A DNA stretch of 64,000 bases from Chaetoderma sp. LZ-2023a (taxonomy: Eukaryota > Mollusca > Caudofoveata > Chaetodermatida > Chaetodermatidae): positions 17,511,924-17,575,923 of the forward strand of contig CM067372.1 in the NCBI GenBank assembly GCA_034401795.1. Reading direction: 5' to 3'. Positions 22,041 through 63,104 of this stretch are shown here, one piece after another. Position 1 is the first letter of the stretch. Every line of letters begins with the position of its first letter. The notes beneath the pieces were generated by a model, which saw nothing but the letters and a program-made list of their open reading frames with translations, was not told the origin of the DNA and did no database searches. Both the position numbers and the translations under genes were made by a program.

Positions 22041-23556
22041 TACTGAACCAAAAAAGTTTAGCAACATGAGAATATTACTGTATTAATGTTAAGAAACAAA
22101 AACAATAAATTGATTCAAATATATTATTTAATTGATAGGACATTTTCCAATTTGAACAACAGTCTCTTGTTACTGTAATGCTAGCATCGCGCCTTTAACA
22201 CAGCATCATTCAACGGAAGGGCCCAATTTAAATAATGACACTGAGCTGTTAATACTGGTTGTGACCTCCGCGCGCATTAACCACTGCCGTACATCGCTTT
22301 CTCATGCTTCAAATTAAGCACCTGATGTCACGAAGAGGAATCGCATCCCATTCCTGGAGAAGTGCAGCTTCCAGCTCCCGCACGTTGTGAAGATGTGGAT
22401 GGTTCTCACGCACCATATGGCCAAGAATGTCCCACACGTGTTCGATAGGGGACAGGTCCGGTGATCGCGCTGGCCAGTCCAACACCGGAACATTGTTAGC
22501 CTCAAGGAAATCACTGGTGACCCTAGCTGAATGAGGACGGGCGCTGTCTTGCTGGAACATAGTCTGCATGATGCTGCATAAAAGGGATGACAGCAGGGAC
22601 GACAACTTCTTTACAGTAACGTTGAGCCGTTAAATTTCCGCGAATCACAATAAGATCTGTTTTGCCATTTTCATGGATTCCAGCCCACATCATGACACTG
22701 CCGCCACCAAATCTGTCGTGCTGAATGATGTTGGCTGCATCATACCGTTCTAAATGTCGCCAAACTCGTTGCCTACCATCCGCCACATCCACACAAAACC
22801 TCGACTCATCACTGAACAAAATGTGGCTCCATTGTTGAGCACGGCATCGCTGATGAGTTCTTGCCCATGCAAACTGATTCTCGATGTGACGCTCTGTAAG
22901 CGGAACAGCAACAAGTGGATGACGGGCATGCAGTCCAGCGTCATGGAGTCTGTTTCGCACAGTTTGTGGATACACTGTAGTGCCGGTAGCGGTGTGCAAA
23001 TTACGGGACAGCCGCGGTGCAGTCTCAAACCTGTGACGTCGTGATGACGTCACTAAGTAGCGGTCTTCTCGTGGTGTTGTTCCTCTCGGTCTGCCAGATC
23101 GTGGTCGGTCATTAACATGTCCAGTTTCCTGCTCACGTTGGCGGAGACGGGAAATGGTTGACGCGTGAACATTAAAATGTCGAGCAACAGCGCGAACACT
23201 GCCCAGCAGCGAGTCTTCCCATTGCTTCATGGCGCTGATTTTCGGGTAGCCCTGGGCGGCGGCCCATGTTCAGTAGGGTAAACTTTTAAGCGTTTTCTGT
23301 TAACATTCGTTATCTGCTTTTGCAATATGGTGAATTTTTGCCTTCACTACCCGCCAATGTGGGCCAGTGCATGAAAAATGCATTTTCACATGCAGTAAGC
23401 GTGCGGCCGAGAAATGCAAGAAATGATTTGCATTTCTTCATGATCAGCGAGACATTACATTTGACGAAACATGCCTGCAAATTTGGTTATAAATGGACAC
23501 ATAGTTTTAATACAACAAACCAAACTTCACTGTTGCTAAACTTTTTTGGCTCAGTA
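22041..23556 (-). mobile_element. Tc1-type DNA transposon, copy 1 (dead)
   Basis: A 1,516-bp element with 25-bp inverted ends (22041-22065 and 23532-23556; starts TACTGAACC on one side and TACTGAGCC on the other, 24 of 25 matching). It is flanked by the TA duplication typical of Tc1/mariner. The transposase runs on the minus strand. A close relative with the same ends lies at 61,581-63,104. The element sits between the satellite and the first visible exon of the helix-hairpin-helix gene. Confidence 0.95.
22309..23267 (-). pseudogene. Tc1 transposase, frameshifted
   Basis: Tc1 (DD34E) transposase. The N-terminus starts MGRRPGLPENQRHEAM from the ATG at 23,267-23,265. Paired-type helix-turn-helix DNA-binding sequence follows (VARHFNVHASTISRLRQR), then the catalytic blocks FSDESRF, FQQDSARPHSA and SPDLSPIEHVWD. 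Compared with copy 2 it lacks 2 bp near 23,196 and 2 bp near 22,561. It also ends early, because a CGA codon after DIRCLI has become TGA. In the stretch FQQD to DIRCLI it differs from copy 2 at 7 of 82 residues. It cannot make a working enzyme. An inverted element of the same type elsewhere in the genome could still move it if its ends are intact. Confidence 0.93.
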
Positions 23557-24840: not shown

Positions 24841-25825
24841 GAACAAGAGCTCCGCAAACGGCGCATAATACCCCACCATGATGACAAACCAATGAATGAG
24901 AGCTAGGAGAAAACATTTATTTCTTCCTGACCCATCAGACCAGTCATCCTTATGAAGTGTCAAAGCGATCGGTTAAACGGTCAAGGAGGTATCGTCCGGA
25001 AACCAATTTTCAAGATGGCTGCCACTGACTGGTGGCCATATTGGATTTCGGATTATTGTAAATTTCGATAAGTTCCTTCACCAGCCATATTCCAATGAGC
25101 TTAGGAAGTGATCCGATAAATGGTAATGGAGATATCATCCAGAAACCAACTTTCAAGATGGCAGCCCGTGGCTGGCGGCCATCATGGAGTTCGGATCATC
25201 ATCAATTTCGAGGGTTTTTTCGATAGGTTTCTTCCTCAGACCTAGTCCAACCACTCTATCAAGTTTCAAAGCGATCCATTAAAGGGTAACGGAGTTATCA
25301 TCTGTAAACCAATTTTTAAGGTGGCCACCGGTGGCTGGCGGCCATCTTGGATTTTGGATCATTGTGAATCTCGAGAAGTTTCTTCCCCAGAGGTAGTCGA
25401 ACCACCCTATGAAGTTTCATAGCGATCTGATAAACGATAACAGTTATCATCTGGAAACCAATTTTCAAGATGGCCACTGGTGGCTGGCAGCCATCTTGGA
25501 CTTCGGATCATTGTCGATTTCGATAGGTTTCTTCCTCAGACCTAGTCTATACACTATGAAGTTTCAAAGCGATCCAATAAAGGGTAACAGAGTTATCATC
25601 TGGAAACCAATTTTCAAGATGGCCACCGGCGGCCATCTTGGATTTCAGATCATCGTCGATTTCGATAGGTTTCTTCCCAAGACCTAGTCCAACTACACTA
25701 TGAAGTTTCAATGCGATCCGACAAACGGTAACAGAGTTATCATCCGGAAACCACTCTGCCGCCCGGATGGACGGCGCCATTACATAATACCCCGCTAAAT
25801 TTTTTGGCGGGGTATAAAAAGTAGT
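24840..25825 (+). mobile_element. Non-autonomous element with about six ~147-bp core repeats
   Basis: A left border with GAGCTCCGCAAACGGCGCAT and GATGACAAACCAATGAATGAG is followed by about six diverged units of roughly 147 bp. Each unit contains a CCGGAAACCAATTTTCAAGA-like block, a GGCCATCTTGGATTTCGGAT block and a CTATGAAGTTTCAAAGCGAT block. The right border has ACGGCGCCATTACATAATA and a 9-bp hairpin (ATACCCCGC...GCGGGGTAT). The same border and core are found reversed at 30,800-31,235, so this is a dispersed family. The plan (flank, tandem core, flank, hairpin) resembles the molluscan 'pearl'/HINE elements thought to derive from Helitrons. I see no CTRR end, so the class is uncertain. Confidence 0.7.
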
Positions 25826-25844
25826 TATCGAACGAAAACTGAAA

Positions 25845-26045
25845 ATTTGCAGGAAAAGGCACATGGATGGATGGGATGGACTAATTGACTGACCCATAAA
25901 TTAACCTGCATTTTCATACTACCTAGCCAACCTTCCCATGAAGTTTTGTCGCAATACTCCAAGCAAAAGTAAAATTATCGACTGCAAAACGTAAGTGCGA
26001 TGGATGTACTAACGCAAAAACAATGCCCCCCTCCCCTCCTCTGCG
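25845..26045 (+). repeat. Dispersed repeat fragment
   Basis: Contains GGATGGATGGGATGGA and CTTCCCATGAAGTTTTGTCG, then CAATACTCCAAGCAAA. The same series of words occurs at about 32,790-32,960, so this is a second copy of one dispersed family. Confidence 0.6.
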
Positions 26046-26074
26046 AGTCGCGCAAGTGGGTGGATAATGACTGT

Positions 26075-26379
26075 CTTGAATATTAGTAGGTCAAGTTTTT
26101 GTCGGCTATATAAGCTGTTGAATATTAGTAGGTCAAGTTTTTGTCGGCTATATAAGCTGTTGAATATTAGTAGGTCAAGTTTTTGTCGGCTATATAAGCT
26201 GTTGAATATTAGTAGGTCAAGTTTTTGTCGGCTATATAAGCTGTTGAATATTAGTAGGTCAAGTTTTTGTCGGCTATATAAGCTGTTGAATATTAGTAGG
26301 TCAAGTTTTTGTCGGCTATATGAGCTGTTGAATATTAGTAGGTCAAGTTTTTGTCGGCTATATAAGCTGTTGAATATTT
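26075..26379 (+). repeat. 42-bp minisatellite, seven units
   Basis: Seven near-identical 42-bp units beginning TTGAATATTAGTAGGTCAAG, plus a partial eighth. 42 is a multiple of 3, so one frame stays open and reads a 14-residue repeat (LLNISRSSFCRLYK). It lies inside an intron with no splice context, so I treat the frame as chance. The unit start, TTGAATATT, is the same word that begins the palindromic repeats at 29,333 and 32,308. Confidence 0.92.
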
Positions 26380-26445
26380 TGAAATTAATCCACGCGCAAC
26401 AAAAGCTAATTAGTTTTAAATACTCAACAAAATATCTCCTTTATC

Positions 26446-26660
26446 TTAACCCTTTAATGACTAAATTTGCTCAAAAAAATTAAAATTTACTTCTTGAATG
26501 TCTATTTTCAGGCCAAGAGATGACTATTTTCGAAAATTGACCACTGGAATGACTGGCTCGGTTATCGAGCCAGTCATTCCAGTGGTAAATAAAAAAAAAT
26601 AGTCTTCTCTTGGCCTGCAAATGGGCATTCCTCAAGACCCCTTCACCGTAAAAGGGTTAA
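26446..26660. mobile_element. TTAA-flanked palindromic MITE (copy 1)
   Basis: A 215-bp foldback sequence, including TTAA at both ends (TTAACCCTTTAATGA... ...GTAAAAGGGTTAA). The centre is an almost perfect hairpin: TGACTGGCTCG, a short loop, CGAGCCAGTCA. The outer arms carry TTTTCAGGCCAAGAGATGAC and its complement. TTAA target sites and CCCTTT ends fit a piggyBac-type non-autonomous element. At least ten copies lie between here and 47.5 kb. Confidence 0.88.
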
Positions 26661-30799: not shown

Positions 30800-31235
30800 G
30801 TGGTTTCTGCACGTTATCTCCGCACACCATTTATCAGATCGCTTTGAAACTTCATAGAATGACTCGACTAGGTCTGAGCAAGAAGCCTATCGAAATCATC
30901 TATGATCCGAAACATAATATGGGTGCCAGGTACCGGTGTCCATCTTGTAAATTGGTCTGTGGGCGATAACTCCATTTCTGGGCAATAAATGTATTACCAT
31001 TTATCGGATCGCTTTGAAACTTCATAGGATGACTGGTCTATGTCTGAGGAAGAAATCTATCGAAATCGACGCTGATCTGAAATTCTATATGGTTTTCACA
31101 TACCTCCCAATGTCCTTTATTGGATTGAAACTTAATATGATGACTTGACTTTCTCTAGGAAAGAAATCTCTATCTTCTGATAACTCATTCATTGGTTTGT
31201 CATCATGTATTATGCACCATTTACGGAGCCCTGAT
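30800..31235 (-). mobile_element. Inverted partial copy of the 147-bp-core element
   Basis: In reverse complement this holds two to three core units (ATCGCTTTGAAACTTCATAG, CTCGACTAGGTCTGAG, CGATAGGCTTCTT-type words) and the left border of the element at 24,840. Its outer end reads TCATTCATTGGTTTGTCATC and GCACCATTTACGGAGC. It lies in the next intron, opposite in orientation to the larger copy. Confidence 0.75.
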
Positions 31236-31309
31236 TTCAAAATAATCCACTTGCTAAGCACTAATGGATCATACAGAATTGTTGTTCAGCGTCCATACTA
31301 CATCTTGTA

Positions 31310-31825
31310 TTAACCCTTAAACTCTTAAATTTGTTCAAGAAAAATAAAATTGCCTAGATAATGTCCATCGAGCCAGTTATTTGTGGTAATTTTAAAAAAT
31401 AGTCATCTCTTAGTCTGCAAAAGGACATTTCTCGATATCACAGCAGAAGCTGATTTTGGGTATACCCTTTAACTCATATCAGCCAAAATTACTTCAGTGG
31501 TCTTAAGAAGTGTCCATTTGCAGACTATGAGTAGACTATTTTTGAAAATTTACCACTGAAATGTCTGGCTCAATAAGCGAGCAAGTCATTCCAGTGGTAA
31601 ACTTTCAAAAATAGTCTTTCCTTGGTCTGCAAATGGACATTTTCTGAGAAAATCAAAAATTTCCTGAATAAATTTGAGGGTCCATTTGCAGACCAAGAGA
31701 AGACTTTTTGAAAATTTACCACTGAAATGACTGGCTCGATAACTGAGCCAGTCATTCCAGTGGTAAATATTCAAACATAGTCTTCTCTTGGTCTGCAATT
31801 GGACATTTTCTGAGAAAATTGAAAT
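31310..31825. mobile_element. Cluster of TTAA palindromic MITEs (two to three fused copies)
   Basis: Starts TTAACCCTTAAACTC and then repeats the MITE core three times: a reduced copy near 31,365-31,450, a full hairpin near 31,490-31,680, and another near 31,678-31,815. Each has AAAATTTACCACTG and ATGACTGGCTCGATAAC arms with their complements. The copies abut without spacers, suggesting insertion of one into another or template switching. Confidence 0.8.
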
Positions 31826-31887
31826 TTGTGCATCTGTCCATCATGCCTGTTCTACAGTCACATAACTTGCTTTCTGTTCTTCTCCAG

Positions 31888-32694: not shown

Positions 32695-33060
32695 ACTGGG
32701 CCAATTTCAATTACTCTTGAGAAATGTCAATTTTCAGATGGAGAGAAGACTTTGAAAATTTACCACTGAAATGACTGGCTCAATATGCACGGATGGATGG
32801 ACACAAATTCAGAGACAAAGGGATGGAGGGACGGGCTGACTAACCCACAAAATAATGTAGATTTCCCTAGTACCACAGCCAATGTTCCCATGAAGTTTCC
32901 TCACAATACTCCAAGCAAAGATAGTTATTGTACGAAAACCCAAAATTTGCACACGGACGGAGGGACACAAAAAAACCCTTTTGCCTGGACAAAATCTAAG
33001 CATCTCAAGGGGGACAACTCTCACAAATATGGACAAATCTCATCGAAACAAAATTATGAC
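32695..33060. repeat. MITE half plus dispersed GGATGGATGG repeat
   Basis: 32,720-32,785 is one arm of the TTAA MITE (CTTGAGAAATGTCAATTTTC... ACCACTGAAATGACTGGCTC). It is fused to the dispersed repeat also found at 25,845 (GAAGTTTCCTCACAATACTC, CCAAGCAAAGATAGTTATTG). Non-coding. Confidence 0.6.
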
Positions 33061-33064
33061 AATA

Positions 33065-33358
33065 CCCTATACTAGTAGGGCAGATATGTGAAAAAGATGT
33101 TCCATTCTGGCAGAAAGCATGAAATTTGGCATATAGGTGGTTTAAGGTATCCTGATCATAATTAGATGCGGTGCCACATGATTCTACCAAGGGAACTCAT
33201 TCAAAATGGCAGATTCAAAATGGCCGCCTTCCCAGCAGAAAATTTGCATTACTCAAGCTCTAGACGGAGTAGAGAGATGGGATTAATGTCAAATTAGGGG
33301 TTTCATGGGTCAATCGTTATAATTCCACTCACTACAATACTCTAAATATGTAAATATC
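33065..33358 (+). repeat. Left terminal inverted repeat of the nuclease-CXC element
   Basis: Contains GATGTTCCATTCTGGCAGAA, GGTGCCACATGATTCTACCA and CACTACAATACTCTAAATAT. All are found reversed at 36,291-36,592. The tip (CCTATACTAGTAGGG) is more diverged from its partner than the body. Confidence 0.88.
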
Positions 33359-33488
33359 AATCCTTCCATAGCGACAACCTGTGTTTGATGTCAAGACGGT
33401 GGCTCTTTAAGATGTGTTATCTAAAAGATCCATCTCTTGAGAACAAAAGCAATATAGCATCTAGAAATAGTTTAAATTACTTGATTTC

Positions 33489-36153
33489 TTAATATCGAAC
33501 CAAGTAATGGTCATTATAGATACGTTCAATTGTCCTATTAGAGTATGCAAGGCTATACATGATGCTGTTGATTGTTGAATCATGATTCACAGACGTCACA
33601 CCGCATGAGCACAACTGTGTACACGGTAAGTTGGATTTATAGCATTTGCATCTGCCAGTGCAATTACTTTTGCAAGCACATTTCACGAGTTCCCGGCATG
33701 CCGTAGATGCGTCTGCAAGCAAACTCCATTGCGGTGACCAAGTGTCTCCATCTCTGACCCAACCCCAGTCAGCTGGCGATGCCGTTTTTGCATTTGCGTG
33801 GAGTGATTGGCCGATGACCTGCCTGGAACGCAGCACGTTTGGTGTGTTGCAGCAGAGCTGCACTGGTCGGAGGAATGTTTTCTAGCTGCCTGTTGCCAAA
33901 AGCCAAAAGCCGTTTTCGTGCCTCATTAACCTTTGACAATGGTGATGTGCGTTTGTACAGTAGTCCAGCGTTTCCATGTCATTGTCACACAGACGCCGGG
34001 GCATCAGACAGTCTCCTAAATAGTGACTTGAATAGATCTGAAGTTCTCCAAACTTCCTATGCTGTCTTCTTGCCAATCCCACAAAATGCAGACACAGTGT
34101 CACACCCAGAGAAAGCATGCATAAATAGCAGTCCTTGTGACGATTCTGCACCCAAGACTGTTGCAATGCCATGAGCTGATACATAGCGGAAGGTCTTCCC
34201 ATGGCCAGATGCGACCCAGAGATCACACCCATGAAGAAAGTTTGCTGTCTGTATGGCTAGGACTACGACGTCTGTATCTGTAGCATCATTGTTCGATAAC
34301 CTTGGTGATATGCATGGAAGGCGTGGAGCAACATTCTACCATCTGCTTCATCTTGCGTGCATGGCGCGAGTTGTGAGACATCATGCTCAGGCCTCATCAG
34401 CACGTTTTCCTCACATGTTGTGACGAGTATCTTTCGTTCTGGTAGCTCGAATGACTCCAATGTATGTGCGAGAAAGGTGAAGAGGCCTGTTTTGTTTGCA
34501 TCAACTCATAGGAAAGTTTTCCAATATTGAGGGAGTCTTGTACTCGATGCAACACGAAGAGCTTCACCATGTCCCCGTAATTCTCTAGCGTGTGTCTTCA
34601 AGCTTCCCGCCTTATACACATCCTATACAACATCCAATCTTTCAACCGTCTGTAGTTGTCTAGCAATGTGTGGGAGGAAGACGTGCTCTGCAAAATCTCC
34701 AAATGTGTTCACAACCCCGTTTGATTTCTTGGGATCTAGATTATGCATCATAGCTGCTCCCTCAATGATCTTCACTTCAACCTCTGGACAATCAGCTGCA
34801 CGAGCTACTAATGCTTCCAAACATCCCAACAGATCTGATTTGCTGCCTTGGCGCATTGCGTTGCTCTCAGCAAGTGATGGGGGCCATGGATGATTCTCAT
34901 GCTCAAAGAATGAATCAAGGTCTCCGTCTCTGGATTGGCAGGAAATGTACATCTCTCTTCATTGCAACAAGCTTCTTGTTGGTTCTGGTACTCTTCCTCT
35001 GTTTTGATTTGAACAAAGCCAAATTGTTCTTTTGGATTGGGTCATATACCGATTTTGATGATACAGATAGTCAATCTGCGACGAATGCGTGGTACTGTCT
35101 GCCTAGTTCTTCTGCTGTTTGGATCACATTCACTACAGACTCGGACATAATGACTTTGGTATCTAGAGTCACTAAGTCAAAACTGTCATCTAAAAATGGG
35201 TTTCCCATTTCCTCGATTGCATCAATAAGACAAATTGTGTTTAAAGCAAACAATTTCTGCTTACTCGGAATCTGCTCATGGTGACAGTTATCATTGATAT
35301 TTCTGTGTGCATGTTTCACTTCGTACTCGCTGATCATCCTTCCTATTTCTGGGCCTGACACCATCCATCGTTTCAAAGCAGCTTCATTTTCTGTGATTCC
35401 GATCATTCCACCATCGCCTTCAGAATAGCATTTTGCTGCTCGTGGATTTGATCATGTGCCAAGGCTGAGAACGTGTGAGCCGTTTTCTGAGTAACGAAGT
35501 TTCCTTCAACACATTTTCTATGTACAAGTGGCATCAGTTCTCAAGTTGCAACAGATCAGCGACATGGATGCTGAGCCATCGTGCATAGTGTACATGATCC
35601 ACGGGATAATCTTGCCCAATGTCTCTACATACAACGGGAAATTGGCCTCTCGCTGAGCTCTCATGAATTGAAGAAACAGCAGCTCTAATTTCAAGACTGA
35701 ATTCCAGTACTTAAACTGTGGGTGGTCTGTTTCCTTCTGCTGACACCAGTCTTCGAATGGCAGTGTGTCCTCTGAGGCAGTATATGCACGTTTCTGCAAT
35801 ACATAGAGAGCAGCGGATGTCACCTGGTGTGCCCATTGCCCTCGTGATGTATGCGAGCCAGTTTGAATGGCATCGGCTTGGCCTTCTATAGTTACATTAG
35901 CTGTTGTCATCACAGCCACCCATCCACTGTTGCTTAGCCAGTGTCCCAACACATTGAGTAGCGCCATCTCAATGTGAAGTCCACCCATCATCACCACATA
36001 CTTATCCTCACCATATAGAAGGGGCCAAGGCCATTTTATCTTCTTTGCAATATCATATAATGGCTGATCAAGAGTGATGACTGGCACCTGTCCATGATTG
36101 ATATGCTGTGTAGCTTGCTGAATTAAATCCATACCATGTTTCACCATTGCCAA
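33489..36153 (-). pseudogene. Large transposon protein: FEN1/PIN-like nuclease and CXC domain, broken
   Basis: Order on the minus strand: an N-terminal block at 36,153-35,518 (VPVITLDQPLYDIAKKI, YVVMMGGLHIEMALLNVLG, PQFKYWNSVLKLELLFLQFM). Next comes FVTQKTAHTFSALAHDQIHE near 35,490-35,430, then ALKRWMVSGPEIGRMISEYE at about 35,380. A middle block lies at 34,952-34,623. Nuclease motifs follow: DEADGRMLLHA (about 34,350), DTDVVVLAI (34,278-34,252) and GCDTVSAFCGIGKKTA (about 34,115-34,068). Last is a CXC zinc motif CACKSNCTGRCKC (33,680 onward) with CTQLCSCG. The three nuclease blocks align with FEN1/XPG: E-A-E/D, D-x-D, and G-C-D followed by a G-I-G-x-K-x-A helix-turn-helix. At least five frame pieces are visible, so this copy is dead. 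Confidence 0.8.
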
Positions 36154-36290
36154 ACTATGAGCAAAAACTTGTTTCTAAAATGTTCCGCCCGGAACATGTG
36201 TGTACAAACAGTTAGCAATAATACTACTAATTTACAAATGTTACAACAACGACGACCACAACAACAATAATAATAATAATATATTTTTCA

Positions 36291-36592
36291 GCATGTTTAT
36301 CTATTTAGAGTATTGTAATGGGTAAAATCATAACCAGTGACCCAAGAAACCCTTAATTTGACATCAATTCCAGCCCTCTACTGCATCTAGAACTTGAGTA
36401 ATGCAGATTTTCTGCTGGAAAGGTGGCCATTTTGAATCCGCCATTTTGAATGGGTTCCCTTGGTAGAATCACGTGGCACCGCTTCTAATTATGTTCAGCA
36501 TACCGTAAACCACCTATATGCCAAATTTCATGCTTTCTGTCAGAATGGAACATCTTACCTCAAATTTGTTACATACCCGACCCACTATACCT
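36291..36592 (-). repeat. Right terminal inverted repeat of the nuclease-CXC element
   Basis: Reverse complement of the left end. It starts just after an (ATA)n run and GCATGTTTATCTATTTAGAG, and ends near ACCCGACCCACTATACC. Confidence 0.88.
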
Positions 36593-37355
36593 AATATGTC
36601 CACTGAAAAATGTAGATTTAAGTCTAAGATATGATTCCCACCCACCCACCCCCAAAATTTGGACGAATCTCACCGAAACAAAGTCATCAGGGGTTGAAAA
36701 TTAAGTTTTTCCTGATGGTTGCCCTCAAGGCTTTCATGGATATTTTTAAGTTGCCCTATCAATGCAATGTTAAATTGAAGAAAAATTAAGTTGCCCTAAA
36801 AGAAAATCTCCAAAACCGCTTGGGTGATCGATTCAAAATTCATGAAAGATCATCCATGGCAACAGCTGAACCAATTTTGTTTATGGAAACTTGGATTGAC
36901 CAAATGCTTCGGCAGCCATCTTGGATGACCTAGTTTTCATGAAAATTTCGCTGAACAGTGGGCTGAAATTTGGGAGATATGCTTAAGAAATTTGGCCATA
37001 AAAGTTTGTTCAAAGGAAGTTGATACATAAAAAAACATGTCCGTCGTGGACTAAGGAAAATGTAGTGTTTGGCGACCATATTGGATTTTGTATTTGCCAT
37101 CTTTGAAACTTGGATAAACGGTTTGCCATTGATCTTGGACCATTTTCCCGCCAAAAACACAAAAGCAATAGGAAATTTAAAATGTCTTCTTGAGAACCAC
37201 TGGATTGATTTTGAGCAAATTTAGTAGCTCACATCCTTGTTCTTATTGCAGTTCATGCCAAACTGTAGGGTTCTACTTATAAGCGCTACATGCCTCTTGT
37301 AAAGAAGTCCATTTTTGAGTGTCTAGTATGATAAATTATCCTGAAGCAATACGTA
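36593..37355. other. Non-coding flank, dispersed-repeat words only
   Basis: AT-rich DNA with 'AAGTTGCCCTA' repeated twice and CAGCCATCTTGGATGACC-type words shared with other dispersed repeats. The segment GGACGAATCTCACCGAAACA resembles, in direct orientation, GGACAAATCTCATCGAAACA just outside the left end of the nuclease-CXC element at 33,030. No gene seen. Confidence 0.5.
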
Positions 37356-44001: not shown

Positions 44002-44823
44002 TTAACACCTTAATTATCAATATTTATCAAGAAAATAGGACATTTTACTCACTGAATGCACATTTGCAGTCGAAGAGGACTTTTTGGCAATTTACCACTG
44101 GAATGTCTGGCTCAATTAAATCTTGAGATTGACAGTCAAAAATTTCATAAAAAATTGTCAAAAGCAGCTGATACTCGAACTTGATCTGTAACTAGCAATA
44201 AACCAAGTCTCAGTTATATATCGTGAAGGAGAAGGAGTCTTGAAAGCTGATATGTTTGTGTTTCATAAGTCAAAAGGGGACATAACTCCATCAAAAAATG
44301 ACGCAAACGCCTGAAACCCGAACTTGGTCTGTAATTTCTCATAATAAAGTAATGTACCAATTCTCAGTTGAATATCTTGAGACTGCGAAAAAATGGGCGG
44401 AAAACTAATATTTTTCGTATATATCATAGGTCGAATGGGGGCATAACTCGATCAAAAATGTACACATATGCCTAAAACTCGAACTTGGTCTGTAACTTCT
44501 CATAACAAAGCAATGTAGCAATTCTCAGTACAATATCTTGAGAGTGCGAAAAAAAGTGCAGAAAACTAATATTTTTTGTATTGCATAAGTCGAAAGGGGG
44601 GAATAACTCCATAAAAAATTGACTCCTACGCCTGAAACTCGAACTTGGCATGTAACTTCTCATAACAAAGCAATATACCAATTCTCAGTTGAATACCTTG
44701 AAGGACTGCGAAAAAAAGTGCGGAAAACCAACTGCGACAGACAGACAGACAAACAGATGGACGGACAGACAGACTGTAGTCCCCCCCCCGGTTTTACCGC
44801 AATTTTGAGGGTTAAAGGGTTAA
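44002..44823. mobile_element. TTAA MITE interrupted by a tandem-core element
   Basis: The left part of the MITE is at 44,002-44,118 (TTAACACCTTAATTATC... AATGTCTGGCTCA) and its tip at 44,800-44,823 (TTTTGAGGGTTAAAGGGTTAA). Between them sit about four units of the CTCGAACTTGGTCTGTAACT / CATAACTCCATCAAAAA repeat. That repeat ends in a GACAGACAGACAGAC run and GTAGTCCCCCCCCCGG, the truncated hairpin of the element seen whole at 59,817-59,850. The insertion order is therefore MITE first, tandem-core element second. Confidence 0.72.
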
Positions 44824-51410: not shown

Positions 51411-51999
51411 ACTTGTATCCAGCAATAGTGACAGGAGCCTGTCCTGTAAAGACCAGCTCACAGAGAGTCTGCTATTTGCTGAATAGTGGATTGAAAGGTA
51501 TCAATACTCTTTCCTTCACACTACTCTGCAAATTTGCTAACCTTGTGGTTATATGATTTGAAGGTTGACCTTCTCGCGGCTGCGATGAAACTCGCAGCCT
51601 GTTGAGAAAAGCCTTCCGACGTGGAACGTCGTTTGATAACATCCACGCAGTCAATTTGAACATCTGGGGCCATTTGTGTAGGAAGCGGCCCTTGGACTGG
51701 AAGATTATCTTTGGAATCTCGGGCAGCTGCACTGGATTGACCACCAGCAGATCCAGGACCACACCCTGCTGGGCCAATATGGTGCTATTAGCAGGACAAG
51801 GCACGGTTCTCCCCTGATCTTCACCAAGATCTTCAGCAGAAGAATGGTGGCCGGGTACGCGTAAGCGGGCATCCCTCTCCAGCTTATCGCCAGAGCGTCT
51901 GTGTCGATGGCATTTGGATCTGACAGAAGTCATGATTTGAGCATTTTCCTTTGTGGCGAACAAGTCCACGTTGGGTTTGCCCCAATGCTCGAAGATCCT

Positions 52000-53100
52000 T
52001 CATAGAACTGGAGGGTTGAGGGACCATTCTGTTGGCAGAATTCTCTGTCTGCGAGACAAAGCATCCGCCAGAATGTTCAATCGGCCAGGAATGTGAGCTG
52101 CTTTCAAAACAACCGAGTAATTCCTGCAACATTGAATCAAGTGCCACACTTCACACTTTGATACAAAGTGTGGGTGACCTGGTCCCGCGCCTTGGCGATT
52201 TATGTATGATACTACCGTCAAATTGTCCGACCATATCAATATCACCTTTCCCCTGATCATCGGAAGAAACTCTTCCAACGCCAGTTCCACTGCCATCATT
52301 TCCAACAGATTGATATGCAGCTGACTCTCCAGGAGAGTCCATGTGCCCGAGACCTGGTGTTCTCCCAGGCAGGCACCCCACCCTTCCAGCGACGCATCCG
52401 TGTACACGGACAGCTGGGGGCGAGGTAGGTGCAGCGAAACCACTACTAGGAGATTCTGATGCTGTGTCCACCATACAAGATGCGATATTATCGGCTCCAA
52501 AACTGGCACCAGTTTTGACAGGGGTTCTGTTCTGTTTCCACAGACATCAGATACAACTGGATAGGTCTTCTCATTAGAGCAGCGAACGGGATCACTTGCT
52601 CCATGGAGACCATCATGCCCAGCATCTGAAGAAACCGCCTCGCCTGAATGTGGTTTCCCACTCGAAAATGGCTAACAGAGACACCACTCTGGGCTCTGAC
52701 GGGTAAACCCTGCCCTCCTCGAGATCGAATCGCATCCCCAAATAAACGAAATGTTGAGTGGGTGTCAACTCGGATTTCTCCTTGTTGACAATCCAGCCTA
52801 GATCTGAAAGTAACTTCAGTCAGAGCAGTATCCACGTTCAACCTGGCTGCCGAGTCTGCCTTGAGCAGCCAATCGTCTATGTAGGTGTGTAGCGCCACGT
52901 TCTCTTTTCTGAGAAACGCTGTCACCGCAAGGACCACTCTTGTGAAAACCCTCGGAGCTGTTGACAGGCCAAACGGGAGAACAGTAAACTCCCATACTTG
53001 ATTCTGAAACGCAAATCTCAGCCGTCTAACGGGGTTGTCCGGCTCGCAGTCCGCTCCCCCCCACCCCTTTCTTAACAAGAGAGAGAGAGAGAGAACCATT
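52000..53100 (-). pseudogene. DIRS reverse transcriptase and RNase H region
   Basis: The reverse transcriptase palm is recognisable by FTVLPFGLSTAPRVFT and the YIDDWLL catalytic box. The RNase H follows with LSVYTDASLEGWG, LLEMMAVELAL and WSDNLTVVSYINRQG. Part of the broken element; order and motifs are those of DIRS. Confidence 0.93.
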
Positions 53101-53188
53101 TCGGTCTCGGCACGGCGGGTATAACTGGCACCGCTGTTCCTGTCGCACAGGTGCGGTCCAGGCGGATATGAAGGGAGCTCTCGTACCC

Positions 53189-55190
53189 TCAGGTACGATA
53201 CGCTCCCCTCTGTCCGCCTTTTGAGGACTTACCCGTACCCTTCCCGCCTCTAGGGCGGTCAGGAGCAACCTTGGGGAGGGCAGGAGCCTCTACAACCTTT
53301 CTGGCTTTCTTAGCCGGCGGCGACTGAGAAAATCCAGCTGAAGCAGAAGTCGCAGCAGGCTTACCTTTCGCCTTGCCCCTATGCTTCTTCTGCTTCTTTG
53401 GAGGTTGTCCAGCTAGCGGTTTCCCCACAGCCCCTAGTGCGTGCGCTTGCCGCACTAGCTCCAGCTGTAGGTTGACCGCCAACCGATTCTGTGCGATGCT
53501 GGCCGTATCCTCTAGGATGGCCCGCGCTTGGCCACCGAAGATGCTAGGCCCTGTCAGGGGCGTCGCAAGAAGACGCTCCCTGACTGCCGTAGCCAGACAC
53601 ATATGGTCAATAACCATTTGCCTCCTGGATTTGGTCACACGCGCCTGCACCCTTGCCAGTGCGTCCATAAACAGCACCAAGCCGTCATTCACGCACGAAA
53701 GCGCCACAGGTGGCACAGGGTGGCCTGCCCCCGCTTCAGCCCACACCGACTGAAGAAGACGATAAGAATGATTGACCGCACTCATAGCTGCCCTCACACC
53801 CTCGTCGAATAGGGACAGGACTTCCTCTTGGTGTACCTGGGACCTGTCCACAAGTGCCGGACCGGAGCCACCCGCTCCAGCACTCTGAACCCCCAGGACC
53901 CATCGGTCATCCTCAGTGACCGACGGTACTACACCATATCTGTCGTATTCCCCCCGCGGAATACGACACCTTGCCCGCACCTCCCTGGAGGCCGCAGGGA
54001 GCTGGCCCTTGGTCGCAAGTTGCTTGCTATAAATAGTATCCAACAACTCTATGAACCGTGGATCCAGTCCCACTGACTGGATTCGGGCCGCGGGCAAGAT
54101 CCCCGTCCGAATCGATGCAACCGACGGACGGGGCGCATCCTCCTCGGCCGTGGCCGAAACCACAGACGGGTCCACCCTGGCTAGCCAAGCCAGAGCCTCG
54201 GACCAGTCTATTTCCGAGGAGGAAACACCCGCAAACACGTCACCCGTTGACGTGCTCACGGGCCTGCCAGCCACGGCCTCCCGGCAAGGAGCCGCGGCTG
54301 ACACACCAGGCACTCCGGTACCACCCGGTTCCGCCGCCACCACATGAAACATACCAGTCCATGGGGTAGGTCCGCACGGAAAACCGTACGGACCCGTAAC
54401 CGTGGCCAGACACGGGCGCCAACGGCACCCCATGTCCGACCGCCGGACCGGGCGAGATAGGTGAGTACCACGCCCGGCCCGGTCACCGTATCAGCTGGTG
54501 TCAAACCAACCGACACGGAACCGGTGCCCGGTACCAGATTGGCCTCAACCACAGGCGGAGCCGCTGCCCTGGCTTGCGCCAAGCCAGACAGATGGAGGGC
54601 GGTTCCGTCCAGGATGGAATCAACCTCCATATTCTCCACCCATGGCATCACAGGCCGCAGTAATTTCTCCTCCTCGTCTTCAGACTCCGAAGAGTCGTCA
54701 TCAGACGAGGAAACCGCGGACGGCTCCCACACCTGACGGACCGGCCACCGCTACTGGACCACCCGGAGGTGGCCGCAGAGAGACAGAACCCGCCAGGCCG
54801 GACTGCCAGGGGGCCGTACGAGACGGCCCCTCTCGGTAACCAGTCCAGAACCCTGTCCAAGGACAGGGTCCGTACCAGGCATGGGGAGAAACTGCCCCCC
54901 AACCTTCGGTAGCAGTGACGACACCAGCGTGGGCAGAACGCTATGCAGAAAACCCTGCATAGCCGGGCCGAACCACGCCGGCGGTGCCATCTCCAGCTGG
55001 GGTGGTGGAGCGCCCCCACCGGCCGCTCCACGATTTAACATCGGACCGCCTGACCCCGCGTCAGATCCAGCCACATCCTTCTGGCCAAGGAACGTTACCA
55101 TCATATCGACGGACCACACTGCGCACACATTACATCTATGATCAAGGTTACTGGGTGTACACCTAAAACAGACATGGTCCTTAAACACGA
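53189..55190 (-). pseudogene. DIRS gag-like region
   Basis: GC-rich coding region upstream of the reverse transcriptase. A lysine-rich basic stretch (KKQKKHRGKAKGK) lies near its end, and a cysteine/histidine-rich stretch near its beginning (VCFRCTPSNLDHRCNVC). Position and composition fit the first gene of DIRS elements; the sequence itself is not diagnostic. Confidence 0.7.
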
Positions 55191-55881
55191 CGCGTACAAA
55201 CTTATGGCACTCGTCACATGATGGCGGGGCTGGCTTGGCCTATAAAATAAGCACAAACCTACAATAAGCAAGCGGAACGACACGGATGGAAGGCAGACAA
55301 TTAATTTTCAAATAACTTGACCACAAATTAACTGTAACCCTCCCGCACCCCACCCTGCACCGTTACAGCAAAGATCGCATTGATTATGACGACAAGAACG
55401 AAGCGGGCATAAATACACCAATAATTGATCCTCCAGGATGTATCACGGCTCCAGGAATCATATCGCATAGGATTCGGGGTATATTTACCAATCAATATAA
55501 ATTATACTCCTAACGAAAGCCGACACGATATGTGAAGAAACAACAAAATGTACTGTAGCACACGGTAAAATCGCAGACCACGCATCTCTCAAGAATTTTG
55601 ACACCACCGATCATTGCAAACCGATCGTGATCACACGTAAACTTGACCGTCCAAAGTTTTCTGGTATCATTTTTAGTACGCAGCACCCAGAACAAGATGC
55701 GCGAATTAACGAAAAATTTTCTTCACATAAACATCCGAGCATCACGGGTGTGACGTCACCCAATCGGACCCTACGGAGAACGACGTCAGCCGATATTCGT
55801 GTTAGAAATACTGTAGCAAACACCTATTTTCATATCTGCCGATCGCCTGTTGGGGTTTAAAGAAGGCGATCGTCTGGCATA

Positions 55882-57660: not shown

Positions 57661-57669
57661 ATATAAATC

Positions 57670-59850
57670 TTTAGAGATTGAGTAAAAAAAATCCATTAAA
57701 AATTGACTGAAGCAGCTGAAACTCGAACTTGATCTGTAACGTCTCATAACACAGCAATAAACCAAGTAAGTCTCAGTTATATATGGTGAAGGAGAAGGAG
57801 TCTTGAAAGCTGATATGTTTGTATTTCATATGTCGAAAGGGGACATAACACCATAAAAAAAATGACACAAATGCCTGAAACTCGAACCTGGTCTGTAATT
57901 TCTCATAATAAAGTAATGACCAATTCTCAGTTGAATATTTTGAAAAACTGCGAGAAAAAGGGGCGGAAAACTAATATTTTTTGTATTTTATAAATCGAAA
58001 GGGGGCATAACTCCATGAAAAACTGGCGAAAATGTCTGAAACTCAAACTTACTCCGTAACTCCTTACACTAAAGCGATGTACCAATTTTCCCTTAAATAT
58101 CTTGAAGGATTGCGAAAAGTGTGGAAAGCTAATATTTTTCATCGAATGCGGGCATAACTCCATCAAAAATTGCCGCATACCCCTGAAACTCAAACTTGGT
58201 CTGTAACTTCTCATAACAAAGCAATGCAGCAATTCTCAGTAGAATATCTTGAAAGACTGCGAAAAAAAGTGCGGGAAACTAATATTTTTCGTATTTCATA
58301 AGACCAAAGGGGCATAACTCCATGAAAAATTGACAAAAATGTCCGAAACTTGAACTTGCTCTGTAACCCCTTAGACTAAAGCGATATAACGATTTTTCAT
58401 TAAATATCTGGAACAGAGTTTGTACACCGTTTTGTGTCTGAAATTCCATGACCAAATTAACAAATTCCATGACCTCTAAGACTTAATATCTAGGAGATTT
58501 GTGTTTATGAAGTAGCTCCATAAATTACAATATGACTTTATTCTGCAAAATGTTTGAATATTGTGTCTTGTAACAACCAATCCAAAGCCTTGTTTGATAA
58601 GCTGTTGCCATAATTGTATTGTACATCGAGGTGACAGCGGAAATTTATGCTACCAGATTTCTTTTATTTTGCATGATTACCATTTTCCATGACATTTCCA
58701 TGACCTATGATAAAAAATGCTGATTTTCCATGACTTTCCAGGGCTGGAATTTTAATTTTTATATTCCATGACTTTGCATGACCAGTACAAACCCTGCTTG
58801 AAGGAGTGCGAAAAAACCTGCAGAAAGCTGATATTTTTCATATCAAAAATTTACGCATACGCCTGAAACTCCAACTTGGTCTGTAACTTCTCATAACAAG
58901 GCAATGTAGCAGTTCTCAGTATAATATCGCTGGAAAGACTGCGAAAAAAGTGCGGCAAACTAATATTTTTCATATTTCATAAGGCGAAAGGGGGCATATA
59001 ACTCCATGAAAAATTGACGTAAATGTCTGAAACTCAAACTTGCTCTGTAACTCCTTCAGGGTTCTGCGCACACTGGTCGTGATAACCACCACTCAACAAT
59101 TTTAACCAGCACTAAAGATTAAACTATCATTTTTAACCACCACTTTTCAGTTATTTTGTTGAAAGTAAGATTTATTTCAAGGAACTTTGTAAAATTTCCG
59201 TAAAAATGTCCGGCACTAATTTCATTCTGGACAGAACGGTGTCCTTATACTAAAGGCAAGCGATGCACCGATTTTCGCTTAAATATCTTGAAGGAGTGCG
59301 AAAAGCTGATATTTTCCGTATTTCTTAAGTGGAAAGGGGGCATATAACTTCATCAAAAATTGACGCATAGGCCTGAAACTTGAACTTGGTCTGTAACTTC
59401 TCATAACAAAGCAATGTAGCAATTCTCAATATAATATCTTAAAAGACTGCGAAAAAAAGTGCGGAAAACCAATATTTTATACTAATTCTAAGTGGAAAGG
59501 GGGTATATAACTCCATGAAAAACTGACGAAAATGTCTGAAACTCGAACTTGCGCTGTAACTCCTTATACTAAAGCGATGCACCGATTTTTGATAAAATAT
59601 TTTGAAGGAGTGCGAAAAGCTGATATTTTTCGTATTTCTTAAGTCGAAAGGGGGCATAACTCCATCAAAATTGACGCATACGCCTGAAACTCGAACTTGG
59701 TCTGTAACTTCTCATAACAAAGCAATACACCAATTCTCAGTTGAATACTTTGAAGGGTTGCGAAAAAGTACGGAAAACCAATTACGACAGATGGACGGAC
59801 AGACGGAGTGCAAACCTTTAGTCCCCCCGGTTTTACCAGTAGGGGACTAA
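57670..59850 (+). mobile_element. Tandem-core non-autonomous element ending in a CTAA hairpin (HINE-like)
   Basis: About fourteen diverged units of roughly 130-160 bp. Each holds GCCTGAAACTCGAACTTGGT, CTGTAACTTCTCATAACAAA, ATTCTCAGTTGAATATCTTG, GACTGCGAAAAAAAGTGCGG and GGGGGCATAACTCCATCAAA words. The end reads GACAGATGGACGGACAGACG, then TTAGTCCCC, a loop, and GGGGACTAA. That 9-bp stem ends in CTAA followed by T, compatible with a Helitron 3' end, although the CTAA lies inside the stem rather than after it. No helicase is present. Around 58,400-58,790 a different insert with repeated TTCCATGAC words breaks the array. A truncated copy lies in RPSA intron 3. Confidence 0.75.
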
Positions 59851-61580: not shown

Positions 61581-63104
61581 TACTGAACCAAAAAAGTTTA
61601 GCAACACTGAGAATATTACTGTATAAATGTTATTTAACAAAAACAATAAATTGATTCAAATATATTATTTAATTGATAGGACATTTTCCAATTTGAACAA
61701 CAGTCTCTTGTTACTGTAATGCTAGCATCGCGCCTTTAACACGGCATCATTCAACGGAAGGGTCCAATTTAAATAATGACACTGAGCTGTCAATACCGGT
61801 TGTGACCTCCGCGCGCATTAACCACCACTGTACATTGCTTTCTCATGCTTCGAATTAAGCACCTGATGTCATGAAGAGGAATCGCATCCCATTCCTGGAG
61901 AAGTGCAGCTTCCAGCTCCTGCACGTTGTGAAGATGTGGATGGTTCTCACGCACCATACATCCAAGAATGTCCCACACGTGTTCGATAGGAGACAGGTCT
62001 GGTGATCGCACTGGCCAGTCCAACACCGGAACGTTGTTAGCCTCAAGGAAATCACTGGTGATCCTAGCTGAATGAGGATGGGCGTTGTCTTGCTGGAACA
62101 TAAAGTCTGCATGATGCTGCATAAAAGGGATGACAACAGGGGCGACAACTTCTTCACAGTAACGTTGAGCCATTAAATTTCTGCGAATCACAATAAGATC
62201 TGTTTTGCCATTTTCATGGATTCCAGCCCACACCATGACACTGCCACCACCGAATCTGTCATGCTGAATGACGTTGGCTGCATCATACCATTCTCCTGAA
62301 CGTCGCCAAACCCGTTGCCTACCATCCGCCACATCGACACAAAACCTCGACTCATCACTGAACAAAACGTGGCTCCATTGTTGAGCACGCCATTGCTGAT
62401 GAGTTCTTGCCCATGCAAACCGATTCTCGATGTGACGCTCTGTAAGCGGAACAGCAACAAGTGGACGACGGGCATGCAGTCTAGCATCATGGAGTCTGTT
62501 TCGCACAGTTTGTGCATGCACTATAGTGCCGGTAGCGCTGTGCAAATTACGGGACAGCCGCTGCACAGTCTCAAACCTGTGACATCGTGATGACGTCACT
62601 AAGTAGCGGTCTTCTCGTGGTGTTGTTGATCTCGGTCTGCCAGATCATGGTCGGTCATTAACATGTCCAGTTTCCTGCTCACGTTGGTGGAGACGGGAAA
62701 TGGTTGAGGCGTGAACATTAAAATGTCGAGCAACAGCGCGAATGCTCTGCCAAGCAGCGAGTCTTCCCATTGCTTCATGGCGCTGATTTTCGGACAGCCC
62801 TGGGCGGCGGCCTATGCTCGGTAGGGTAAACCTTTAAGCGTTTTCTATTAACGTTCGTTATCTGCTTTTGCAATATGGTGAATTTTTGCCTTCGCTACCC
62901 GCCAATGTGGGCCAGTGCATGAAAAATGCATTTTCACATGCAGTAAGCATGCAGGCCGAGAAATGCAAGAAATGATTTGCATTTCTTCATGATCAGCGAG
63001 ACATTACATTGACGAAACTTGCCTGCAAATTTGGTTATAAATGGACGCATAGTTTTGATACAACAAACCAAACTTCACGGCTGCTAAACTTTTTTGGCTC
63101 AGTA
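61581..63104 (-). mobile_element. Tc1-type DNA transposon, copy 2, inserted in a LINE
   Basis: 1,524 bp, the same ends as copy 1 (TACTGAACCAAAAAAG and the TTTTTTGGCTCAGTA complement) and flanking TA. Both sides are LINE sequence, so it entered a pre-existing LINE 3' fragment. Same orientation as copy 1, about 38 kb away. Confidence 0.95.
61790..62815 (-). pseudogene. Tc1 transposase, near-intact
   Basis: 341 codons long, the normal size for Tc1. From the position of the start codon it reads GRRPGLSENQRHEAM, a helix-turn-helix part (VARHFNVHASTISRL), then FSDESRF, FQQDNAHPHSA and SPDLSPIEHVWD. That gives D, D and E with 34 residues between the last two, i.e. DD34E. Two defects only: the start is ATA (62,815-62,813) where copy 1 has ATG, and an arginine CGA has become TGA at 62,647-62,645 (DRP*SGRPR). 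From 62,599 to the end the frame is open, and its C-terminus (GGHNRY) is 20 residues longer than in copy 1. Confidence 0.93.

What the first reader, a model, noticed from the sequence alone, without database searches (positions are those of the whole stretch)
33065..36592. TIR-bounded element coding a FEN1/PIN-like nuclease fused to a CXC domain: candidate undescribed transposon type
About 280-bp inverted ends enclose a single decayed gene. Its motifs DEADGRM, DTDVVVLAI and GCDTVSAFCGIGKKTA line up in order with the acidic active-site blocks and helix-turn-helix of FEN1/XPG, and a CXC zinc motif follows. A long N-terminal region (GGLHIEMALLNVLG, QFKYWNSVLKLELLFLQF) has no DDE signature that I can see. 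I recall this protein as present in many unexplained copies in animals; the inverted ends would explain that. The nuclease, rather than a DDE enzyme, might do the cutting.
Basis: partly seen in the sequence, partly recalled or inferred. Interest (0 to 1): 0.8.

Follow-up and report, generated by a model that had tools for sequence, protein, structure and literature searches.

The report
Decayed copy of an AcademX-type transposon
This is most likely a dead, broken copy of an already described kind of animal jumping gene (the nuclease-carrying branch of the Academ superfamily), not a new type of transposon.

Summary
Inverted ends (264 nt of ungapped arms, 89% complementary; full ends 33073-33357 and 36293-36587) enclose one decayed minus-strand gene, with TAC on both outer sides as a candidate 3-bp duplication. 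'Undescribed type' is not supported: Academ, a DDE superfamily, already has a nuclease-encoding lineage, AcademX, with 3-4 bp duplications (passage of PMC10045372; DDE, PMC9587614). I read this as a dead AcademX copy. Limits: no host genome, relative or named Academ sequence could be compared, so membership rests on anatomy, literature and recall. The XPG/FEN1 likeness is by eye; tests against archaeal FEN1 did not beat shuffles (11 of 300 and 138 of 1000 scored as high). Both AlphaFold models were too poor to use. The duplication is one weak site: 21 of 169 nearby boundary pairs give 3 bp or more.

The parts
33070..33072 (.). left copy of candidate 3-bp target-site duplication, TAC
   Evidence: equals 36588-36590; weak: 21 of 169 boundary pairs within 6 bases of the chosen ends give a match of 3-6 bp
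33073..33357 (+). left terminal inverted repeat
   Evidence: 264 ungapped nt at 89% plus a gapped outer part starting TAGTAGGG
33603..33680 (-). Cys8/CXC-like cluster, CACKSNCTGRCKCYKSNLPCTQLCSC
   Evidence: only match to the Cys8 spacing pattern in six frames of the window
33579..33969 (-). C-terminal pieces of the gene after the nuclease-like part, Cys8 cluster included
   Evidence: pieces H, I
34018..34958 (-). nuclease-like part: blocks VEVKIIEGAAMM, LDVV.DVYKAGSLKTHAREL, DEADGRMLLHA, TDTDVVVLAI, GCDTVSAFCGIGKKTA, in the order of the FEN1/XPG acidic blocks and helix-hairpin-helix (matched by eye)
   Evidence: pieces F, G; profile tests not significant
35074..36174 (-). N-terminal part, proposed Academ-type DDE transposase core (TLDQPLY, GGLHIEM, DQIHEQQN as candidate catalytic neighbourhoods; inference)
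   Evidence: pieces A-D; weak AlphaFold model of the first 218 aa, mean pLDDT 42.6
36293..36587 (-). right terminal inverted repeat
36588..36590 (.). right copy of candidate target-site duplication, TAC

Best explanation
A decayed, non-autonomous copy of an Academ DNA transposon of the AcademX lineage. The intact element would encode one protein. Its N-terminal DDE (RNase H-fold) transposase would bind the long inverted ends, cut there and join the element to a target cut with a short (3-bp) stagger. An XPG/FEN1-like nuclease domain in the same chain would act as an accessory, probably trimming flaps or gaps during excision or integration. The C-terminal Cys8/CXC finger would bind zinc and DNA. 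Shown here: inverted ends, one broken gene between them, Cys8 cluster, motif order, a weak candidate 3-bp duplication. Inferred: the DDE core, the nuclease fold, the division of labour, and an internal deletion of the 5' part of the gene.
For: Inverted ends and boundaries. TAC on both sides fits AcademX (3 or 4 bp) and not AcademH (9 or 10 bp) as given in PMC10045372; exact 8-, 9- and 10-bp duplications are absent at this boundary, and no boundary pair within 6 bases gives more than 6 bp. One gene with an N-terminal part, ordered acidic motifs and a Cys8 cluster. The passage says AcademX encodes a nuclease; one search lists Academ as DDD/E. Academ is common in some animals: a bivalve library has 100 curated Academ consensus sequences, mean 5565 bp (PMC10294476, passages). 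From recall only, from no call: that the AcademX nuclease is of XPG type in the same chain as the transposase, that Academ proteins have a Cys8 zinc finger, and that peptides much like those here recur in abundant animal proteins.
Against: No direct comparison with a named Academ sequence was possible. Pieces and read-through gave no relevant hit in Pfam, NCBIfam, PHROGs or PDB sequences. hhalign to archaeal FEN1: score 21.0, reached by 11 of 300 shuffles and exceeded by the reversed sequence at 26.0. Ordered block profile: 138 of 1000 shuffles and 12 of 47 ORF decoys score as high. In four block scans, other places in the window outrank the target. The element is shorter (3.5 kb) than the bivalve Academ mean. 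The duplication is one site; 21 of 169 nearby boundary pairs give 3-6 bp.
Confidence: 0.77

Rival explanations
1. An undescribed transposon type in which the FEN1/PIN-like nuclease itself cuts and no DDE enzyme is present.
For: No DDE family was recognised in the pieces or the read-through by Pfam; nuclease-like motifs are in order.
Against: A DDE superfamily with a nuclease-encoding lineage and 3-4 bp duplications is in print. XPG-type enzymes cut flaps and are not known, from general knowledge, to join ends to a target. Absence of a Pfam hit says little for a decayed copy of a family that may have no Pfam model.
Confidence: 0.06
2. A member of another DDE superfamily (Kolobok, Zisupton/KDZ) that carries a nuclease or CXC domain.
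For: Kolobok lineages carry accessory nucleases (KolobokD, E, P; PMC9587614, passages). CXC domains occur with KDZ transposases (recalled).
Against: Kolobok makes TTAA duplications and Zisupton 8 bp (PMC12730594, passages). Here the boundary gives TAC, no boundary pair within 6 bases gives TTAA, and none gives 8 bp (exact matches only, one old copy). The accessory nucleases named for Kolobok are DnaQ, lambda-exonuclease-like and His-Me types, not XPG.
Confidence: 0.1
3. A host gene or pseudogene that lies between two copies of an unrelated repeat in inverted orientation, with no transposon at all.
For: The window is repeat-rich and other repeats also occur inverted; one copy only, no empty site.
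Against: The arms stop at matching TAGT-type ends. blastn finds the arms nowhere else in the window. The pieces span 33579-36174, most of the interior, on one strand.
Confidence: 0.05

Closest known systems
AcademX lineage of the Academ DNA transposon superfamily (Kojima 2020, Mob DNA 11:15; paper not held, known here through a passage of PMC10045372)
   Same: Transposon gene with a nuclease-like part; candidate 3-bp duplication within the stated 3-4 bp; inverted ends; Cys8 finger and XPG label as recalled
   Different: This copy is broken in many places and shorter than the bivalve Academ mean; no sequence comparison to a named AcademX was possible
AcademH lineage
   Same: Same superfamily
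   Different: Encodes a helicase and makes 9-10 bp duplications (PMC10045372); no such duplication here, and no helicase family hit in Pfam
KolobokD / KolobokE / KolobokP
   Same: DDE transposon with an accessory nuclease
   Different: Other nuclease folds and TTAA duplications (PMC9587614)
FEN1/XPG nucleases
   Same: Order of acidic blocks and GxGxK helix-hairpin-helix by eye
   Different: No significant profile match from this copy

Membership tests
AcademX | Terminal inverted repeats bounding the gene | tested here: met
AcademX | 3 or 4 bp target-site duplication | tested here: inconclusive
   TAC/TAC at the TAGT ends agrees, but it is one site, and 21 of 169 boundary pairs within 6 bases give 3-6 bp
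AcademX | Nuclease domain, XPG type (type recalled) | tested here: inconclusive
   Motif order by eye; no profile support; AlphaFold mean pLDDT 35.8
AcademX | DDE transposase of Academ type | tested here: inconclusive
   No Pfam hit; AlphaFold mean pLDDT 42.6, best ten-residue block 67, a short strand just before TLDQ
AcademX | Cys8 zinc finger (recalled as part of Academ proteins) | tested here: met
   single match to the spacing pattern in six frames of 64 kb; that the family has it is recalled
AcademX | Full-length similarity to a named Academ protein | not testable with these tools
   No Repbase or eukaryote collection; no relative found in viral contigs or genome contigs
AcademH | 9-10 bp duplication | tested here: not met
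   exact matches, one old copy
Kolobok | TTAA duplication | tested here: not met
   exact matches, boundaries within 6 bases
Zisupton | 8 bp duplication | tested here: not met
   exact matches, boundaries within 6 bases

The most novel reading that the evidence does not exclude
A lineage outside Academ in which an XPG/FEN1-like nuclease, not a DDE domain, makes the transposition cuts.
Probability: 0.05. Interest if true: 0.75.

Novelty: new member of a known kind. Interest (0 to 1): 0.15.

Why it matters
It settles the finding as a probable instance of a described but little-studied transposon lineage. The open question attached to it, what a nuclease does beside a DDE transposase, is real but belongs to AcademX as a whole, and this dead copy does not advance it.

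Tried and rejected
Searches for relatives: protein-derived patterns (3 and 2 stretches matched, none a relative by tblastn) and hand-made degenerate patterns (1, 0, 0, 0 stretches) in viral contigs, and one hand-made pattern in genome contigs (0). The single pattern hit, L001, looks like a phage contig and its matching ORF like a chance hit (by reading the ORFs). tblastn to plasmids with one piece and blastn to phages with the element: no match. These collections are prokaryotic or viral, so misses say little.

Family libraries: Pfam with 10 pieces and with the read-through and its nuclease part; NCBIfam and PHROGs with 6 pieces each; PDB sequences with the 92-aa piece and the nuclease part. 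All that came back was weak and unrelated: Pfam best E 0.069, NCBIfam an IS66 accessory model at 0.044 and below its cut-off, PHROGs unknown families at 0.047-0.081, PDB polyketide synthases at 0.066.

Neither hhalign nor block profiles set the nuclease part apart from shuffles. The decoys were imperfectly cleaned (one scored 172.6, probably a FEN1). The profile is narrow (Neff 2.7), so a miss is weak evidence.

AlphaFold without an alignment: 218-aa ORF, mean pLDDT 42.6, and a 231-aa frame of the nuclease part, 35.8. Too poor for a fold search, so none was run.

Papers: not held under the ids tried: Kojima 2020, Yuan & Wessler 2011 and the DOI I recalled for a KDZ transposon paper. Searches pairing Academ with XPG listed no paper that I could recognise as describing the protein; one search listed 15 of 153, and I opened four of those 15 (passages only). 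Papers seen as passages only: PMC10045372, PMC10799480, PMC9587614, PMC5753468, PMC10294476, PMC9143410, PMC8290104, PMC9004415, PMC8905726, PMC12210899, PMC12730594; in PMC8277862 and PMC11071193 the word was not found. Other listed papers were seen as listings.

Full report
What is there. No host genome is held for the window; it looks like repeat-rich animal DNA (inference from the repeats and elements under Noticed in passing). Between 33073 and 36587 lies a 3515-bp element. Its inverted arms match over 264 ungapped nt at 89%, and a gapped alignment extends them outward to ends beginning TAGTAGGG and TAGTGGGT. The best self-inverted match of the region scores 342 bits; the best of 100 base shuffles scores 41. 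Directly outside lie TAC and TAC, a candidate 3-bp target-site duplication. This is weak: of 169 boundary pairs within 6 bases of the chosen ends, 21, the chosen pair included, give a match of 3-6 bp, and moving the right end inward by three bases gives 6 bp, CTATAC, at the cost of less symmetric ends. The arms differ by 20 transitions and 10 transversions over 264 nt, so the copy is probably old. blastn found no second copy in the window.

The gene. On the minus strand, nine pieces in all three frames, with three further stops inside pieces, give an 867-residue read-through that includes 11 X. A stop-free run as long as the 218 aa at 35518-36174 occurs in 4 of 500 dinucleotide shuffles of the core. 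Order from the N-terminus: a part with TLDQPLY, GGLHIEMALLNVLG and DQIHEQQN; a part with VEVKIIEGAAMM, LDVV.DVYKAGSLKTHAREL, DEADGRMLLHA, TDTDVVVLAI and GCDTVSAFCGIGKKTA; then a Cys8 cluster at 33680-33603 with the spacing CxCx3Cx3CxCx6Cx3CxC, the only match to its pattern in six frames of 64 kb. The first piece starts about 120 bp inside the right arm. Compared with a mean of 5565 bp for curated bivalve Academ elements (PMC10294476, passage), this suggests an internal deletion of the 5' part of the gene (inference).

Is it FEN1/XPG-like? Statistics do not back this from the single decayed copy. hhalign to an archaeal FEN1 profile aligns just the GCDTVSAFCGIGKKTA region to the FEN1 GTDY...GIGLKKA region (31 columns, 35% identity), but the score, 21.0, is reached by 11 of 300 shuffles, and the reversed sequence scores 26.0. 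An ordered six-block profile is reached by 138 of 1000 shuffles and 12 of 47 decoys, and it did not place the blocks where the eye does, except near TDTDVVV, GCDT and the hairpin. In single-block scans of the window, other places outrank the target. Pfam and PDB sequence searches give nothing relevant. The profile is narrow (Neff 2.7), so these misses are weak evidence; but the nuclease label here rests on motifs, literature and recall.

Is the N-terminal part a DDE enzyme? Not shown. A single-sequence AlphaFold model of the 218-aa ORF reaches at best 67 in one ten-residue block and places a short strand just before TLDQ; the frame breaks kept the DQIHEQQN stretch out of it.

Is it a known kind? 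Most likely. PMC10045372 (passage) states that AcademH makes 9 or 10 bp and AcademX 3 or 4 bp duplications, and relates the difference to the enzymes they encode, helicase and nuclease. PMC9587614 (passage) lists Academ among superfamilies encoding a DDD/E transposase. That the AcademX nuclease is of XPG type in the same chain, that Academ proteins have a Cys8 finger, and that abundant animal proteins with peptides close to those here belong to them, I recall and could not look up: the primary paper is not held, and searches listed no paper that I could recognise as describing the protein. Kolobok (TTAA) and Zisupton (8 bp) do not fit the boundary.

How it would work. Inferred: the DDE core cuts at the long inverted ends and joins them to a target cut with a short stagger; the XPG-like domain trims flaps or gaps during excision or integration; the Cys8 finger contacts DNA. 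This copy cannot make the whole protein and could move only if an intact relative acted on its ends.

Verdict. Observation confirmed; novelty not supported; a copy of a known kind with confidence 0.77.

Noticed in passing
window 1-21714: Satellite array of about 471 copies of a 46-bp unit, 90% matches, filling a third of the window.
   Followed up: no
window 22067-23404 and 61608-62952: Two same-orientation copies of a Tc1/mariner-like element, 94-95% alike in the four ungapped stretches listed; Pfam HTH_Tnp_Tc3_2 in both, DDE_3 in the second.
   Followed up: partly
window 51472-55239, minus strand: Retroelement with RT and RNase H pieces (RVT_1 2e-05, just under its cut-off; RT_RNaseH 8.2e-06); looks DIRS-like to me, from recall, not tested.
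   Followed up: no
window 25288-26642 and 30826-31827: Facing inverted stretches, six pairs of 102-180 nt, 75-81% complementary, about 5 kb apart, partly inside tandem repeats: possibly the ends of another, larger element.
   Followed up: no
window 26520, 31532, 31698, 37789, 40860, 42500, 47215 (starts of 81-nt copies): Dispersed palindromic repeat family, 7 copies, as in the copy at 26520: CCACTGGAATGACTGGCTC ... GAGCCAGTCATTCCAGTGG; a likely foldback MITE.
   Followed up: no
window 44263-44741 and 57668-59793: Repeat units of about 150-160 bp in short tandem runs at two places 13 kb apart.
   Followed up: no
window 33025-33057 and 36655-36687: A 33-nt direct repeat, 85% alike, lies 15 nt outside the left end and 67 nt outside the right end; perhaps part of a wider dispersed repeat that the element entered.
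   Followed up: partly
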